Source: Candidatus Hydrogenedentota bacterium (lineage in GTDB: Bacteria > Hydrogenedentota > Hydrogenedentia > Hydrogenedentales > CAITNO01). From it: a stretch of 32,635 nt of DNA. Numbering within the stretch: the first letter of the stretch is position 1; the number at the start of each line of letters is the position of its first letter. The notes below the pieces were generated by a model, which searched no databases, was not told the DNA's origin, and saw only the letters and a program-made list of their open reading frames with translations. Location: contig JAAYBR010000008.1 in the NCBI GenBank assembly GCA_012730045.1, forward strand, positions 1 through 32,635, written 5' to 3'. Both the position numbers and the translations under genes were made by a program. Of this stretch, positions 1,342 through 26,168 are shown one piece after another.

Positions 1342-1390
1342 CCGGGGCCGCCCCCGGGGTTTCATGCCCGGAAGCGCCGGAAGGGGCACG

Positions 1391-1553
1391 AAGAAGACAG
1401 GGCCAGCGGGACGCTGGCGCTACGGGCGCGAAGAAGACAAGGCCAGCGGGACGCTGGCGGTAGTGCGCATGAAGAAGACAAGGCCGCCGGGACGGCGGCG
1501 CTACGGACGTGGGCGTTTCCTCGTAGCGCCGGCGTCCCGCCGGCCTTGTCTTC
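1391..1553. repeat. Cluster of four covarying hairpin repeats (family A)
   Basis: Four copies of a unit reading AAGACAAGG, hairpin, GCTACGG. Hairpins lie at 1402-1418 and 1442-1458 (GCCAGCG-GGA-CGCTGGC), 1483-1499 (GCCGCCG-GGA-CGGCGGC) and, inverted, 1528-1544 (GCCGGCG-TCC-CGCCGGC). Stem bases change between copies but stay fully paired, and the GGA apex is fixed. The third and fourth units face each other, so 1471-1553 could also form one large cruciform. No gene is supported here. Short ORFs crossing the repeats encode the repeat sequence only. Confidence 0.85.
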
Positions 1554-9733: not shown

Positions 9734-9970
9734 GTTTTCCGAATGGGTACGCGCCGGTGGCTCTCTCGAAGGGGCGGCAACGAGGAAACGCGGGGACACA
9801 ACTCTCCCGGAACCCGGCACTTTGTCCGGGTCTTGGCAATGTTTCCGCGGTGTTTTATGCTCCTCATGGTCTAGCCCAGACGCTTGGTGATGGACCCAAG
9901 AGAGCATGGGGCGTGCCAAGGGGCGCGGAACCGCACCCGGAAGCCGGGACGAGCCCCGGGGCGAGACGAC

Positions 9971-10084
9971 CCTGGGATCGCCAAGCTCCAGCTTGGCACC
10001 GCGCGCCCAAGCGCGCGCCCGCTCTTCTTCAGGCTACAGGCTTCAGACTTCAGGCTTCAGGAAGCAGGTTCCCGCCGTTCTCCG
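9971..10084. repeat. Hairpin repeat family B, copy 1 (left flank of orphan 1)
   Basis: Starts CCTGGGATC, then hairpin GCCAAGC-TCCA-GCTTGGC (9980-9997), a second hairpin GCGCGC-CCAA-GCGCGC (10001-10016), a CAGGCTTCAG-rich stretch, and ends GCAGGTTCCCGCCGTTCTCC. It is a direct repeat of 11536-11656; the first 76 bases differ at five positions. Confidence 0.8.
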
Positions 10085-10182
10085 TACCTCCGTGCGATAA
10101 CCCGCTTCCCCCTCTTCCTCTTGCCCTCTTTTCCTCCAGACTACAGACTACGGACTCCAGACGGCCCCATCCCCAGACCCTA

Positions 10183-10211
10183 TTGCATTCCCAAACCCCC
10201 TCCGCTATCAT
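10183..10211 (+). promoter_or_regulatory. Promoter in front of the orphan 1 cassette
   Basis: TTGCAT (10183-10188), 17-base spacer, TATCAT (10206-10211). The predicted start of transcription falls on or next to the ATG at 10218, so the first ORF could be leaderless. Confidence 0.5.
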
Positions 10212-10217
10212 AGACCC

Positions 10218-10382
10218 ATGCCCAGATACGCGACAGTCACCGCCCCCGGCATCGACCGGCTCTTCGGCGGGGAAGCCTTCGGTGAGCGCGTCAAGACGAC
10301 CCTCAGGAAACGTGTCCAACCCCTGTCCATCGGACAACAAAGAGGTTGGCGCGAGCACCCCAACGGAGACCAAGCGCTATGA
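10218..10382 (+). CDS. Small ORF (54 aa), possible leaderless gene or gene remnant
   Basis: Encodes 54 residues beginning MPRYATVTAPGIDRLFGGEA and ending GDQAL. It starts 6 bases past a TATCAT -10 element. Its stop overlaps the next start as ATGA (10379-10382), so translation could be coupled. It is GC-rich like the resident genes, unlike the AT-richer gene that follows, so it may instead be the 5' stub of a resident gene whose remainder was lost when the following DNA arrived. I do not recognise it. Evidence for expression is only positional. Confidence 0.4.
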   Translation: MPRYATVTAPGIDRLFGGEAFGERVKTTLRKRVQPLSIGQQRGWREHPNGDQAL

Positions 10383-11395
10383 GGAGGCAAGCCAACTGCA
10401 ACTGTTCCTGCGCATCGCACATATTGCCGCGGCCCAGTCGACGCTCTGTGTTGGGGTGTCTCTATGTTGCCATCGTCTTGTGCGGTTCCCAAGTATACGC
10501 ATCGCCCACCCCACCAAACCCAATTCAGGTTTCATATAGCCTTTCAAAGACGACCATAGTATCTGGCGAATTCGTAAGCATCATAATAACAGCGGTCAAC
10601 GCAGGAGATAAGACGCACTCACTTAGGATCGACGGCAATCATGTGTTTAAAACCGATGTGTTTAGCATAATAGTATCCGGAGCTGATGGCGCTGTAATTG
10701 GTGGTCACAAGAGAATACCGCCAATATATTCCAAAGCGCTAGTGAAGATGTTGCACTATCGCATCCGCACAAACGAATCCATTTCCATTTCATACCCTAT
10801 CCACCTTCAATGGGATACGCATTTTCCGGCAGGAGAATATATCGTTTGCATAGCGCCATTATCTATCACGGTGGGAGGCCAATGCTACACGATACCTAGC
10901 GCATCGATGAAGTTGAAGGTTGTCGGCGAGGACAACTCCTGCTTGATGGAGAAATATGACGAGTTGCTGCGATCAAATTTCGACAGAAAGGTTGTCCGCC
11001 GAGCCGAGTGGCGCAAAATTGACTTGATGGATATTCCGGCGGGATCTCTGGAGTTGCTGTGCGCCTATGGCAAGGAGGCCGTTGGCAGCCAAGTGCGTTT
11101 TCTCTATACGAAGAACTATGGGTTTGCATATTGGCCTGAAATAACAATCTATGCTTGGGACAATATCGCCCAATATGCAACATCGGAGGTGATCGAAGAG
11201 CTTATCTCTATTGTAGATGATCCGGAGTTTGCATACGGGGGCTTTCCTGGAAAGAATTACGACCCTGGAATCATATGGTGCCTTCATAGAATCTACGAAT
11301 GCAGCGATAGCAATGAGAGCGGGCGATTGCGTGAGATATGTGACATGATGCCAGAAAGGTGCAACTTCGAGGCGGCTCAGTATTCGAACGAATGA
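10379..11395 (+). CDS. Orphan exported protein of unknown function, AT-richer than its neighbours
   Basis: A 338-aa protein. I chose the ATG at 10379 (GGAG 10 bases upstream, ATGA overlap with the small ORF). The N-terminus has arginines followed by a hydrophobic stretch (SVLGCLYVAIVLCGSQVYAS), so it is probably exported. Residues about 45-195 are beta-rich (QVSYSLSKTTIVSGEFVSII, PAGEYIVCIAPLSITV), like an Ig-like or intracellular-proteinase-inhibitor-type sandwich. Residues about 200-338 look helical (TSEVIEELISIVDDPEF). Base composition and third-codon positions are clearly AT-richer than every neighbour. It is one of only two genes on the plus strand before 23259, and it lies between direct hairpin repeats. 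Likely acquired by transfer. Function unknown. Confidence 0.75.
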   Translation: MRRQANCNCSCASHILPRPSRRSVLGCLYVAIVLCGSQVYASPTPPNPIQVSYSLSKTTIVSGEFVSIIITAVNAGDKTHSLRIDGNHVFKTDVFSIIVSGADGAVIGGHKRIPPIYSKALVKMLHYRIRTNESISISYPIHLQWDTHFPAGEYIVCIAPLSITVGGQCYTIPSASMKLKVVGEDNSCLMEKYDELLRSNFDRKVVRRAEWRKIDLMDIPAGSLELLCAYGKEAVGSQVRFLYTKNYGFAYWPEITIYAWDNIAQYATSEVIEELISIVDDPEFAYGGFPGKNYDPGIIWCLHRIYECSDSNESGRLREICDMMPERCNFEAAQYSNE

Positions 11396-11535
11396 GTTCT
11401 TTGTTCGGACGATGATGTCGCCCTTCTGGAAAGCGGTGGCGGGGTGGAGATGATGGACATTATCGCCTTGGTGGACGGGTTTGTGCTCGTTCCCAAGTTT
11501 TGCTTGAAAACCAGGAAGGGCTGCGGACGGCGCCC

Positions 11536-11656
11536 CCTGGGATCGCCAGGCTCCAGCTTGGCACCGCGCGCCCAAGCGCGCACCCGCTCCTCCTCAGGCT
11601 TCAGGCTTCAGGAAGAAGACCTTAGACTTCAGGAGGCAGGTTCCCGCCGTTCTCCG
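11536..11656. repeat. Hairpin repeat family B, copy 2 (right flank of orphan 1)
   Basis: Same order and orientation as 9971-10084. The hairpin is GCCAGGC-TCCA-GCTTGGC (11545-11562), in which one pair is a G-T wobble. The GCGCGC-CCAA-GCGCGC hairpin, CAGGCTTCAG stretch and GCAGGTTCCCGCCGTTCTCC end all recur. A 77-codon ORF at 11444-11677 is mostly repeat sequence and is not called. Confidence 0.8.
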
Positions 11657-11730
11657 CGCCCCCGTGGCTCCGTGTGAGTCCCCTCTTCCTCCGGACTCAA
11701 GACGGACTTTCATTCCGCGCTTGGAAGACC

Positions 11731-11768
11731 AAGAGGCCAGGCTGGAGCCTGGCGATCCCAGGGGGCGC
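11731..11768. repeat. Hairpin repeat family B, copy 3 (inverted)
   Basis: GCCAGGC-TGGA-GCCTGGC (11736-11753) followed by GATCCCAGGGGGCGC. This is the reverse complement of the start of copy 2 and together they form a long inverted repeat across 11530-11768. Confidence 0.8.
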
Positions 11769-13739: not shown

Positions 13740-13765
13740 CTCCATGCGGGATGGCCGAGAAGGTA

Positions 13766-13832
13766 GACGCGGCATCTTGCCGCGTTCTTCGGGTCAACGC
13801 GGAGCCCCAAGAACGCGGCAAGATGCCGCGTC
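13766..13832. repeat. 24-bp inverted repeat pair, each arm itself a hairpin (family C)
   Basis: The arms 13766-13789 and 13809-13832 are perfect reverse complements. Each arm also folds alone: ACGCGGCA-TCT-TGCCGCGT (13767-13785) and ACGCGGCA-AGA-TGCCGCGT (13813-13831), with 8-bp stems and 3-base loops. Confidence 0.85.
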
Positions 13833-13903
13833 CACTTTGCGGGCGGCCTCCCAGCTTGCTTCACTTGCAGCCCCAAACCGCCAGGGGCGCCGCCATGCCC
13901 CAG

Positions 13904-13941
13904 TCTCCCATGATTCCCCTGCTTCCCATAATTCCCATTCC
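13904..13941. repeat. Decamer-type repeat (TTCCCATAATTCCC family F)
   Basis: CTCCCATGATTCCCCTGCTT followed by CCCATAATTCCCATTCC. It is the same phrase as 23430-23466 and the reverse complement of 23321-23363. Confidence 0.7.
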
Positions 13942-18922: not shown

Positions 18923-18960
18923 CCCTTCCCGGCGGCCCGATTTCACCGCCGGGCCGGGGG

Positions 18961-18992
18961 AAGACAAGGCCGGCGGGACGCCGGCGCTACGG
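18961..18992. repeat. Isolated family A hairpin repeat between hisF2 and the WbpG-type gene
   Basis: AAGACAAG followed by GCCGGCG-GGA-CGCCGGC (18969-18985) and GCTACGG. It is the same unit as at 1391-1553, 17 kb away, with a third stem version. Confidence 0.85.
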
Positions 18993-20530: not shown

Positions 20531-20578
20531 CCCCGCCCCCGCCGCAGGTCCCAGACAACACCCTGCGTTCCCGCCCCC

Positions 20579-20616
20579 TGGGATCGCCAGGCTTCCCCCT
20601 GGCCTTCCGGAAAACC
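20579..20616. repeat. Hairpin repeat family B, copy 4 (left flank of orphan 2)
   Basis: TGGGATC followed by GCCAGG-CTTCCC-CCTGGC (20586-20603) and CTTCCGGAAAACC. The 38-bp direct repeat at 21341-21378 differs at three positions. Confidence 0.8.
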
Positions 20617-20667
20617 AGCAAGAGGACCGTAACTGCAGGTCGGCTATGTGGTTTCCCAGAAGCGGCG

Positions 20668-20696
20668 TTGACGCCTTGAGGAGGCTCTGCTAGACT
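20668..20696 (+). promoter_or_regulatory. Promoter in front of orphan 2
   Basis: TTGACG (20668-20673), 17-base spacer, TAGACT (20691-20696) preceded by TGC, an extended -10. It is one of the best promoters in the window. Confidence 0.65.
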
Positions 20697-20791: not shown

Positions 20792-21322
20792 ATGCCCTCG
20801 CCCCCCATTTGGAGGCGTCTTATAGAGGAAACGGCGATAGCCATGGAACATCTTAGGCCCGAGGACACTGATTGCGAAAAGCAGTTTGTGCTCTCCTTCA
20901 TTGAGAAGAGACGGCAGCCGCGCTACCTCGAAATGCTGGACAGGGGAAATCTGGAGAAGTTCCATTATGAACTGTCCGACAGAATGTGGGGACACCTCGA
21001 TCCTAACACAACCTTGCACTGCAAGTCAGGCATTGGAATTGATGACATTGCGCGGGTTTGTCCGGAAACGCTGGAGGTTGAGTGGTTCCATGTGATGAAC
21101 CGCCCCCCCGATTCCCTCTCTCGCATTCGAATGGCCGACCTGCCCACGGACCCAACCCTTTTGATGAGCGGCACCGCCATGGTCATCAGCATTCTCTCCG
21201 GAAGGCTGGCTCTATACTATTTGGAAGGGTACTTGGCGCTGTGTTATCGAATGGCGCACCTCACGGGCCCGCTTGCCGAATGCCCAAGGTTTTGCAGCGT
21301 GGTTGACCCATCTTGGCGCTAG
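20792..21322 (+). CDS. Orphan protein of unknown function
   Basis: The frame is open from 20714 (TTG); ATG codons at 20792 (176 aa, used here) and 20843 are alternatives. No start has a well-placed ribosome site. A GGAGG 16 bases before 20792 lies in a small hairpin (20770-20781). The product is cytoplasmic, with no signal or membrane segment. It contains KQFVLSFIEKRRQPRYLEML then KFHYELSDRMWGHLDPN, and a PTDPTLLMSGTAMVISILSG segment. I do not recognise a catalytic motif. It is less GC-biased than its neighbours and lies on the opposite strand to all of them except orphan 1. It has its own promoter and is bracketed by direct family B repeats. Probably acquired. Confidence 0.6.
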   Translation: MPSPPIWRRLIEETAIAMEHLRPEDTDCEKQFVLSFIEKRRQPRYLEMLDRGNLEKFHYELSDRMWGHLDPNTTLHCKSGIGIDDIARVCPETLEVEWFHVMNRPPDSLSRIRMADLPTDPTLLMSGTAMVISILSGRLALYYLEGYLALCYRMAHLTGPLAECPRFCSVVDPSWR

Positions 21323-21340
21323 CACTTTCTCTCCACTTGC

Positions 21341-21378
21341 TGGGAGCGCCAGGCTTCCCCCTGGCCTTACGGAAAATC
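21341..21378. repeat. Hairpin repeat family B, copy 5 (right flank of orphan 2)
   Basis: TGGGAGC followed by GCCAGG-CTTCCC-CCTGGC (21348-21365) and CTTACGGAAAATC. Same orientation as copy 4. Confidence 0.8.
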
Positions 21379-21478
21379 GGCGGTGTGGCGGCGGCGCCGG
21401 GAATGCCCCGCCTGCTTCTTGGGCTTCTTTGTGTTCGGAGTGCTCCGGTGGTAAGGTGTTTCGGAGGTTTTCACCACA

Positions 21479-23320: not shown

Positions 23321-23363
23321 GGGAATGCATGGGAGTTATGGGAAGCAGGGGAAGTATGGGAGG
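23321..23363. repeat. Decamer-type repeat family F, left arm of an inverted pair
   Basis: GGGAATGCATGGGAGTTATG then GGAAGCAGGGGAAGTATGGG, an irregular run of ATGGGA/GGGGAA decamers. Bases 23337-23363 are the perfect 27-bp reverse complement of 23430-23456. Confidence 0.8.
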
Positions 23364-23429
23364 TTGGCAAAGGACGGTCTTGAGGGGGCATGCACCCGGC
23401 ACCCCGGAGAAACCTGTCTGTTCCCCCCC

Positions 23430-23466
23430 CCTCCCATACTTCCCCTGCTTCCCATACCTCCCATCC
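23430..23466. repeat. Decamer-type repeat family F, right arm
   Basis: CCTCCCATACTTCCCCTGCT then TCCCATACCTCCCATCCC. It pairs with 23337-23363 across a 66-base spacer, between the divergent sulfatase and aminotransferase genes. Confidence 0.8.
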
Positions 23467-23497
23467 CCCCACATGGCGCGCGGGAACCGGAAACGGC

Positions 23498-25006: not shown

Positions 25007-26044
25007 ATGAAAGCACGATGGGCGGTTCTGGGGTCCGCGGGCATCGCCCGCCGCCGAACCATCCCCGAGGGCATTGTGAAGGCGGACAACGCGGAGCTGG
25101 CCGCCGTCTTCGACGTGGACGCCGCGGCGAACGGGGCGGTCGCCGCCGAGTTCGGCGCGCGCGCCTGCGCCGGCGAGGACGAGCTGCTGGCGTCGGACGC
25201 GGACATCGTCTACATCGCCACCCCGGCGTGGCTCCACCACGGCCAGGTCCTGCGCGCGGCGGCCGCGGGCAAGCACGTCTTCTGCGAGAAGCCCCTCGGC
25301 ATGACCGTCGCCGAGGGGAAGGAAATGGTCGCCGCCTGCGCAAAGGCCGGCGTGAAACTCGGGGCCGGCCTCATGATGCGCTTCCACGCGCAGCACCAGG
25401 CCGCGCTGGCCCTCGTGCAGTCCGCCCGCCTCGGCGTGCCCGTCTTCGCGCGCGCCCAGCTCTCCTGCTGGTACCCGCCCATCGCGGGCGCGTGGCGGCA
25501 GGACCCCGCCCTCGGCGGCGGCGGCAGCCTCATGGACCTTGGCGGCCACTGCATAGACCTGCTGGAGATGTTCTTCGGCCCCGTCTCCGCCGTCCGCTGC
25601 GAGACCGGCAGCCTCGTCCAGGCCTACGCCTCCGAGGACACCGCCGTGGTCCTCCTCGACTTCGCCTGCGGCGCGAAGGGCGCCGTGGACTGCCTGTTCA
25701 ACGTGCCCGACGCCGCCTCGCGCAACCGCCTGGAGCTCTACGGCTCCCTCGGGAGCATCCTGGCCGAGGGCACCATCGGCCAGGGCGAGGCCGGGCGCAT
25801 GGAGGCCCTTCTCGAGGCCGCCCCCGGCGACTACGCCGCCGCCCAGGAGCGCACCGCCGAGGGCGGCATTCCCATCGCCCCGCCCCCCGTCAACATGTAC
25901 CGCGCCGAGGTCGAGGCCTTCTCCCGCGCCGTGCTGGAGGACACCCCGCCGCCCGTCCCCGGCGAGGACGGCCTCTGGAGCCAGAAGGTCCTCGCCGCCT
26001 GCTACGAAAGCGCCCGCACCGGCGCGAAGGTCGTGGTGCGGTAG
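25007..26044 (+). CDS. Gfo/Idh/MocA-family oxidoreductase (cytoplasmic)
   Basis: A 345-aa NAD(P)-dependent sugar or cyclitol dehydrogenase. The ATG at 25007 has AAAGGAGG about 8 bases upstream. The Rossmann start is MKARWAVLGSAGIARRRTIP. The cofactor-side EKP motif is at 94-96 (FCEKPLG, K95). DLGGHCIDLL gives the family catalytic Asp/His (D177, H181). There is no signal peptide, in contrast to the Tat-exported relative at 29399-30646. It probably oxidises or reduces a sugar ring carbon, perhaps feeding the aminotransferase upstream. Substrate unknown. Confidence 0.9.
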   Translation: MKARWAVLGSAGIARRRTIPEGIVKADNAELAAVFDVDAAANGAVAAEFGARACAGEDELLASDADIVYIATPAWLHHGQVLRAAAAGKHVFCEKPLGMTVAEGKEMVAACAKAGVKLGAGLMMRFHAQHQAALALVQSARLGVPVFARAQLSCWYPPIAGAWRQDPALGGGGSLMDLGGHCIDLLEMFFGPVSAVRCETGSLVQAYASEDTAVVLLDFACGAKGAVDCLFNVPDAASRNRLELYGSLGSILAEGTIGQGEAGRMEALLEAAPGDYAAAQERTAEGGIPIAPPPVNMYRAEVEAFSRAVLEDTPPPVPGEDGLWSQKVLAACYESARTGAKVVVR

Positions 26045-26049
26045 GCGGG

Positions 26050-26103
26050 ATGGACGACATGGACAGTATGGACGACATGGACAGTATGGACGACATGGAC
26101 AGT
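26050..26103. repeat. Tandem repeat, three perfect 18-bp units
   Basis: ATGGACGACATGGACAGT three times in a row, starting 6 bases after the oxidoreductase stop. Each unit is two related 9-mers. In one frame it would read MDDMDS repeated, but no start or coding context supports translation. Confidence 0.9.
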
Positions 26104-26168
26104 GCGGGCGAAGCGGACTACCGCAAGGGCGAATAGGAACCTGTGCGGGATGCTGTTCCCGTTCATAA

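What the first reader, a model, noticed from the sequence alone, without database searches (positions are those of the whole stretch)
9971..11656. Two AT-richer plus-strand orphan genes, each bracketed by direct hairpin repeats and each with its own promoter
From 1 to 23259 all confident genes run on minus, except orphan 1 (10379-11395) and orphan 2 (20792-21322). Both have a recognisable promoter (TTGCAT-17-TATCAT; TTGACG-17-TAGACT with TGC). Both are less GC-biased than their neighbours. Both lie between direct, same-orientation copies of hairpin family B (9971-10084 with 11536-11656; 20579-20616 with 21341-21378). The two proteins are unrelated. The shared architecture suggests that family B repeats mark or mediate insertion of self-contained single-gene cassettes, possibly by homologous or hairpin-directed recombination. 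This arrangement is not one I can assign to integrons, IS elements or RAYT/REP systems.
Basis: partly seen in the sequence, partly recalled or inferred. Interest (0 to 1): 0.75.

Follow-up and report, generated by a model that had tools for sequence, protein, structure and literature searches.

The report
RAYT-type hairpin repeats beside variable orphan genes
The hairpin repeats around these two odd genes are a roughly 100-copy, self-dispersing repeat family of a known kind (REP/RAYT-like) rather than cassette insertion sites, but one of the genes belongs to a small set of fast-changing secreted-protein genes wedged between the same broken transposon and the same fragment of a giant surface protein.

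Summary
Observation mostly right, interpretation mostly not. Both plus-strand, AT-richer orphans and their direct family B copies exist. Family B is a dispersed REP-like family (101 copies in a 4.46 Mb Hydrogenedentota MAG, control 1). Over half the copies lie in inverted doublets, nearly all 74 nt apart (REPIN-like), and one inverted pair encloses a RAYT transposase. Family B does not generally mark cassettes: outside this contig 1 of 12 sampled copies lies near an AT-rich island (13% expected), and some direct pairs flank ordinary GC-rich genes. No related genome held the predicted empty site with one repeat.

Orphan 1 is more interesting. Its left bracket is a ~200-nt repeat plus promoter and both termini of a collapsed Y1 transposase. 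Its right side is a relic of a giant LRR/InlB-repeat surface protein. This layout recurs at C138 and, with an unrelated orphan, at C143; another orphan 1 relative lies directly behind the giant protein at C95. Flanks keep 72-86% DNA identity, the orphans only 39-49% (29-36% protein). That suggests exchange of variable genes between conserved flanks, as in orphan modules of polymorphic-toxin loci. Orphan 2 shares none of this and sits at a REP-edged rearrangement breakpoint.

The parts
9970..10171 (+). Left long direct repeat: family B hairpin (9972-9997), second hairpin CGCGCGCCCAAGCGCGCG, heptamer tract (CTTCAGG/ACTCCAG type) and GGTTCCCGCCGTTCTCCG block
10183..10211 (+). Promoter-like TTGCAT-17-TATCAT, conserved with copies at G000:C138, C143, C111 and G001:C1045, C14
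   Evidence: not found by the generic scan
10218..10382 (+). Relic of an HVTQRGN-type Y1 transposase: N-terminus MPRYATVTAPG fused to C-terminal GGEAFGERVKTTLRKRVQPLSIGQQRGWR; stop overlaps orphan 1 ATG (ATGA)
   Evidence: phmmer E 6e-7 against the intact transposase of G007
10379..11395 (+). Orphan 1: predicted secreted protein, low-confidence model with N-terminal beta-sandwich and C-terminal helical half; relatives at G000:C138 and C95, one partial in G015
11405..11481 (+). Degenerate 3' module DDDVALLESGGGVEMMDIIALVDGF, fragment of the giant LRR/InlB-repeat protein (intact at G000:C44)
11535..11712 (+). Right long direct repeat (family B hairpin 11537-11562, second hairpin, heptamer tract)
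11736..11765 (-). Inverted family B copy; similarity to congener G001 contig C467 begins exactly at its edge (11764)
20578..20619 (+). Family B copy left of orphan 2, 34 nt from a synteny breakpoint (20544)
20668..20696 (+). Promoter-like TTGACG-17-TAGACT with TG
20792..21322 (+). Orphan 2, 176 aa, no relative in own genome or 59 others; no transposase relic, no 3' module
21340..21381 (+). Family B copy right of orphan 2

Best explanation
Family B is a REP/REPIN-like repeat family spread through intergenic DNA by a RAYT transposase (shown by anatomy; the movement itself is inferred). Orphan 1 belongs to a small mosaic gene set: AT-rich, fast-changing secreted-protein genes that originally sit behind the variable end of a giant LRR/InlB-repeat surface protein. 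Copies of such a gene, with a stub of the surface-protein gene behind it, have been displaced to other sites, where a collapsed REP-associated Y1 transposon lies in front and supplies promoter and start. Homologous recombination between the conserved flanks (transposon relic and repeat on the left, surface-protein module and repeat on the right) then swaps the gene in the middle. Orphan 2 is not such a cassette; it is a lineage-specific ORF between two REP copies at a rearrangement breakpoint. Shown: repeat family, RAYT association, relic, mosaic flanks, absence in relatives, breakpoints at repeats. Inferred: recombination as the cause, displacement direction, any effector/immunity role.
For: 101 family B copies, 51+/50-, one chance match in the control. 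Of 100 listed places, 56 lie in head-to-head doublets within 120 nt, 26 of 28 doublets spaced exactly 74 nt; 17 of 17 sampled copies outside called genes; RAYT at C96 between inverted copies 17366+ and 18047-. REPIN and RAYT definitions: PMC3116915, PMC2817692. Relic: N-terminal fragment 63-74% and C-terminal fragment 62-68% identical to intact Y1 transposases of the phylum. Mosaic: C8 against C138 similar at 10127-10390 and 11411-11703 (72-79% DNA), nothing over the gene; C138 against C95 86% over 489 nt beside orphans of 39% codon-aligned identity. C143 has 5' module, a different orphan and a 3' module fragment. These are the three deepest long AT-islands (1.4-1.6 kb, GC 0.51-0.53) in 812 kb. 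At C95 the relative follows the giant protein directly; G002:C36 repeats module, variable end, AT-rich orphan. G001 has MFS and GATase adjacent without REP; in G000 both broken ends carry a family B copy 31-34 nt away.
Against: Only three orphan 1 relatives (window copy included) and one unrelated cassette, all in one MAG. C138 lacks the family B hairpin itself, C143 lacks a right-hand copy, C95 lacks the transposase relic, so no single boundary set is common to all. Low identity of the orphans could reflect fast divergence in place rather than exchange. No toxin or immunity domain is recognised. Family B lacks the GT(A/G)G head of classical REPs. The 812 kb sample includes contigs chosen because they hold cassettes. 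Assembly errors cannot be checked without reads.
Confidence: 0.62

Rival explanations
1. One reading: family B pairs are ends of single-gene cassettes inserted by hairpin-directed or homologous recombination, and orphans 1 and 2 are two such cassettes.
For: Both orphans lie between direct copies; both are absent from G001, and the phylum holds only one partial hit for orphan 1; a further AT-rich ORF lies between copies at C96 16453-17223.
Against: Direct pairs at C84 and C29 enclose resident GC-rich genes; repeats are not enriched near AT-islands outside C8; no empty site with one copy in G001; C138 holds an orphan 1 relative with no family B copy.
Confidence: 0.12
2. Chance: REPs accumulate in intergenic DNA and at rearrangement junctions, so two poorly conserved AT-rich ORFs simply fall between copies. 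Low identity of orphan 1 relatives is ordinary divergence of an old duplicated segment (relic, gene, module).
For: REPs are intergenic; synteny with G001 breaks at repeats in several places; dead-transposon copies exist at unrelated sites (C111, G001:C1045).
Against: Non-coding flanks at 72-86% identity beside a gene at 39-49% is the reverse of ordinary divergence; C143 has the same flanks with an unrelated gene.
Confidence: 0.2
3. A Y1 (RAYT-like) transposon that carries the orphan as cargo: transposase plus secreted gene moved as one unit and later lost the transposase.
For: Relic stop overlaps orphan start at C8 and C138; in G007 an intact transposase is followed within about 40 nt by an AT-rich gene weakly similar to the C143 orphan (E 2e-4).
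Against: Intact G007 copies end in GGGACAGTC inverted ends that enclose only the transposase; the C95 relative has no transposase; other intact copies are followed by ordinary genes.
Confidence: 0.06

Closest known systems
REP/BIME and REPIN elements with RAYT transposases (IS200/IS605-related; PMC2817692, PMC3116915)
   Same: Short GC-rich palindromes, about 100 intergenic copies, inverted doublets with fixed spacing, RAYT between two inverted copies, separate RAYT per repeat family (C96/B, C62/A, C39/GTAGACGCG)
   Different: Family B starts CTGGG rather than GT(A/G)G; some copies carry a second hairpin and heptamer tracts; phylum Hydrogenedentota, where the library search found no REP paper
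Orphan cdiA-CT/cdiI modules of CDI and Rhs loci (PMC3150448)
   Same: Stub of a conserved giant secreted-protein gene next to a variable end and small downstream gene, tandem displaced modules, abrupt end of homology
   Different: LRR/InlB B-repeat protein, no CDI or Rhs domain found, no recognised toxin or immunity protein, displaced to distant sites behind a transposon relic; growth effect untested
HVTQRGN-type Y1 single-gene transposons (Pfam PF01797) in Hydrogenedentota
   Same: The relic upstream of orphan 1 is a deletion derivative of this transposase and its promoter
   Different: Intact copies in G007 have GGGACAGTC ends and no cargo; the copies here are dead and REP-associated

Membership tests
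REP/REPIN repeats with RAYT | Short imperfect palindrome able to fold as single strand | tested here: met
   6-7 bp stems in all five copies; left orphan 1 copy z -4.26, orphan 2 copies no better than shuffles overall
REP/REPIN repeats with RAYT | High abundance (about 100 copies or more per genome) | tested here: met
   101 copies against 1 in the reversed-pattern control
REP/REPIN repeats with RAYT | Extragenic location | tested here: met
   17 of 17 copies in 812 kb outside called genes
REP/REPIN repeats with RAYT | Inverted doublets with fixed spacing | tested here: met
   28 head-to-head doublets within 120 nt, 26 of them at 74 nt
REP/REPIN repeats with RAYT | RAYT gene flanked by two inverted copies | tested here: met
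   Y1_Tnp ORF at C96 between 17366+ and 18047-
REP/REPIN repeats with RAYT | GT(A/G)G head of classical REPs | tested here: not met
   family B begins CTGGGA; families A and C of the same genome do carry GTAG. Hence called a REP-like variant, not a classical REP
REP/REPIN repeats with RAYT | Mobilisation by the RAYT | not testable with these tools
   needs biochemistry or population resequencing
Orphan toxin/immunity module of a polymorphic toxin locus | Stub of the conserved main gene beside a variable gene, with loss of homology at a sharp border | tested here: met
Orphan toxin/immunity module of a polymorphic toxin locus | Recognisable toxin domain and cognate immunity gene | tested here: inconclusive
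   no domain; fold search only weak Ig-like hits (low-confidence model)
Orphan toxin/immunity module of a polymorphic toxin locus | Growth inhibition and neutralisation | not testable with these tools
   needs an assay
Y1 transposon with cargo gene | Transposase intact, cargo inside element ends | tested here: not met

The most novel reading that the evidence does not exclude
A dispersed gene-diversification system: variable secreted-protein genes held between a dead REP-associated Y1 transposon (promoter and start) and a module of a giant surface protein, with REP-like long repeats as recombination arms, allowing genes to be swapped between a main locus and distant silent or expressed sites.
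Probability: 0.2. Interest if true: 0.7.

Novelty: new variant of a known kind. Interest (0 to 1): 0.42.

Why it matters
It replaces a vague cassette idea with a testable structure. It shows a REPIN/RAYT-like system with several matched repeat and transposase families in Hydrogenedentota, shows that such repeats sit at rearrangement breakpoints between congeners, and points to a mosaic set of lineage-specific surface or secreted genes that could explain where some orphan genes come from.

Tried and rejected
Pfam and NCBIfam for both orphans: nothing. NCBIfam and plasmid search with the relic: nothing, probably because the remaining fragments are short. Extra 5' module hits at G001:C92, G002:C166 and C147 are chance. 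Orphan 1 profile in 84,980 species: no relative. Orphan 2 structure: mean pLDDT 41.8, unusable. Orphan 1 model is weak (64.5); PDB hits are partial Ig-like domains (RbmA, ApaG, TRAP, IPI) with TM-scores of at most 0.27 by query length, so only a beta-sandwich is inferred. The cargo-transposon idea was set aside because of the multi-copy boundaries in G007. Paper searches on REP-mediated breakpoints and InlB diversification returned nothing on point.

Full report
What was checked. The window is contig C8 of a 4.46 Mb, 155-contig MAG; named relatives of a phylum transposase place the phylum as Candidatus Hydrogenedentota. The direct repeats are present as stated. The first pair is longer than described: about 170 aligned bases at 87.6% identity, made of the family B hairpin, a second hairpin, heptamer tracts and a GGTTCCCGCCGTTCTCCG block. 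A third, inverted copy lies at 11736-11761.

What family B is. A whole-genome pattern search gives 101 copies, evenly on both strands, against one in the reversed control. Of the 100 listed places, 56 form head-to-head doublets within 120 nt, and 26 of these 28 doublets are spaced exactly 74 nt. All 17 copies in the 812 kb examined lie outside called genes. A Y1_Tnp ORF of the RAYT type (PHWHSRGYLPHFD, MPNHVH) at C96:17395-18025 starts just after copy 17366+ and is followed by copy 18047-. These are the features by which RAYTs and REPINs were defined (PMC2817692, PMC3116915). The one feature not met is the GT(A/G)G head: family B begins CTGGGA. Two other RAYTs in the genome (C62, C39) are followed by the two GTAG-type repeat families that also occur in this window.

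Does it mark cassettes? Six direct neighbours 0.4-4 kb apart are listed. Two are the orphans. C84 and C29 enclose GC-rich resident genes (GC3 0.92 and 0.85). C45 uses a divergent subfamily copy and encloses mixed content. The C147 partner is a doubtful two-mismatch hit. In 812 kb, 6 of 17 copies lie near an AT-island with 14% expected (p 0.02), but without the discovery contig it is 1 of 12 with 13% expected. The general cassette claim therefore fails.

What orphan 1 is. Between its left repeat and its ATG lies an open frame (10218-10382) that is the N-terminus and C-terminus of an HVTQRGN-type Y1 transposase with the middle missing. The better-preserved C138 copy is 63-74% (N) and 62-68% (C, E 3e-14) identical to intact transposases of the phylum, and the window copy scores E 6e-7. 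The relic's stop overlaps the orphan's start. After the orphan, 11405-11481 encodes a decayed piece of DDAALVGSGGVVEMTDDIALVAGF. This is part of a giant protein, seen at C44, with LRRs and eight divergent InlB B-repeat domains.

Recurrence. C138 has relic, orphan 1 relative (35%) and a longer 3' module. C95 has an orphan 1 relative (34%) directly behind the variable end of the giant protein and followed by another module copy, without the relic. C143 has family B, promoter, a very short relic, an unrelated AT-rich secreted ORF and a 3' module fragment. DNA similarity between sites stops at the gene borders: C8 and C138 match at 10127-10390 and 11411-11703 only; C138 and C95 match at 86% over 489 nt downstream, while their orphans keep 39% codon-aligned identity (29% protein). 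C8, C138 and C143 are the three longest and deepest AT-islands in the sampled DNA, though these contigs were in the sample because they hold cassettes. A family member in another genus (G002:C36) shows tandem module, variable end, AT-rich orphan units. Orphan 1 relatives are otherwise limited to one partial hit in 67 other phylum genomes, and none was found in the 84,980-species scan.

Comparison with the congener. In G001 the gene right of orphan 1 lies beside a gene that reads as carbamoyl-phosphate synthase small subunit (my reading of the sequence, not searched); similarity to the window begins at 11764, the edge of the inverted family B copy. In G001 the gene left of orphan 2 abuts an MFS-like gene with a 3-nt gap and no repeat. 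In G000 that MFS gene is on C108, and both broken ends carry a plus-oriented family B copy 31-34 nt from the break. So the orphans are absent in G001, but the sites are rearrangement junctions rather than clean empty sites. At C111/G001:C14 the same locus has one copy in G001 and two in G000 upstream of the same gene.

Mechanism offered. REP-like repeats spread by a RAYT and serve as places where chromosomes rearrange (inferred). Variable genes from behind the giant surface protein have been displaced and now sit behind a dead transposon; conserved flanks on both sides could let them be exchanged by homologous recombination (inferred from the mosaic). This works like the orphan modules of CDI/Rhs loci (PMC3150448), but no toxin, immunity or delivery feature was found, so membership is not claimed. 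Orphan 2 has no relic, no module and no relative, and is most simply a lineage-specific ORF at a junction.

Limits. One MAG, no reads, one fragmented congener, few cassette copies, weak structure models, and a transposase linkage in G007 that rests on a weak protein match (E 2e-4).

Noticed in passing
window 1365-1550, 1759-1927, 18932-18991: GTAG-tagged REP family A (GTAGCGCCGGCGTCCCGCCGGCCTTGTCTTC); similar copies follow the RAYT gene at G000:C62:546-884, suggesting a second RAYT/REP pair.
   Followed up: partly
window 13760-13838: Third repeat family (GTAGACGCGGCATCTTGCCGCGTTC, inverted pair); similar copies follow the RAYT at G000:C39:242-487.
   Followed up: partly
window 23329-23467 and 13898-13941: ATGGGAGTTATGGGAAGCAGGGG-type repeats; synteny with G001:C987 breaks at 23324, right at this repeat, continuing on G000:C108.
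   Followed up: partly
window 26032-26118: 18-nt tandem repeat ATGGACGACATGGACAGT.
   Followed up: no
G000:C96:16453-17223 (L094): AT-rich ORF of about 257 aa between family B copies, next to the RAYT; nature unknown.
   Followed up: no
G000:C111:53600-54320 (L086) and G001:C14:9550-9740 (L089): Same promoter and family B copy in front of a hydratase-like gene in two species; G000 has an extra tandem repeat copy and a transposase relic there.
   Followed up: partly
G002:C36:1-9300 (L091): Two very AT-rich secreted ORFs (about 35-38% GC) alternate with copies of the giant InlB-repeat gene module, like tandem displaced modules.
   Followed up: partly
L195-L197, L208, L210 (AlinenLipids bin-3554): Intact multi-copy single-gene Y1 transposon with GGGACAGTCACC / GGCGACTGTCCC ends.
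   Followed up: partly
G000 contig ends C2, C54, C56, C64, C77, C98, C110, C115, C126, C154 and others: Many contigs begin or end within nearly identical family B doublets and their flanks, so the assembly probably breaks at recent copies of this repeat.
   Followed up: no
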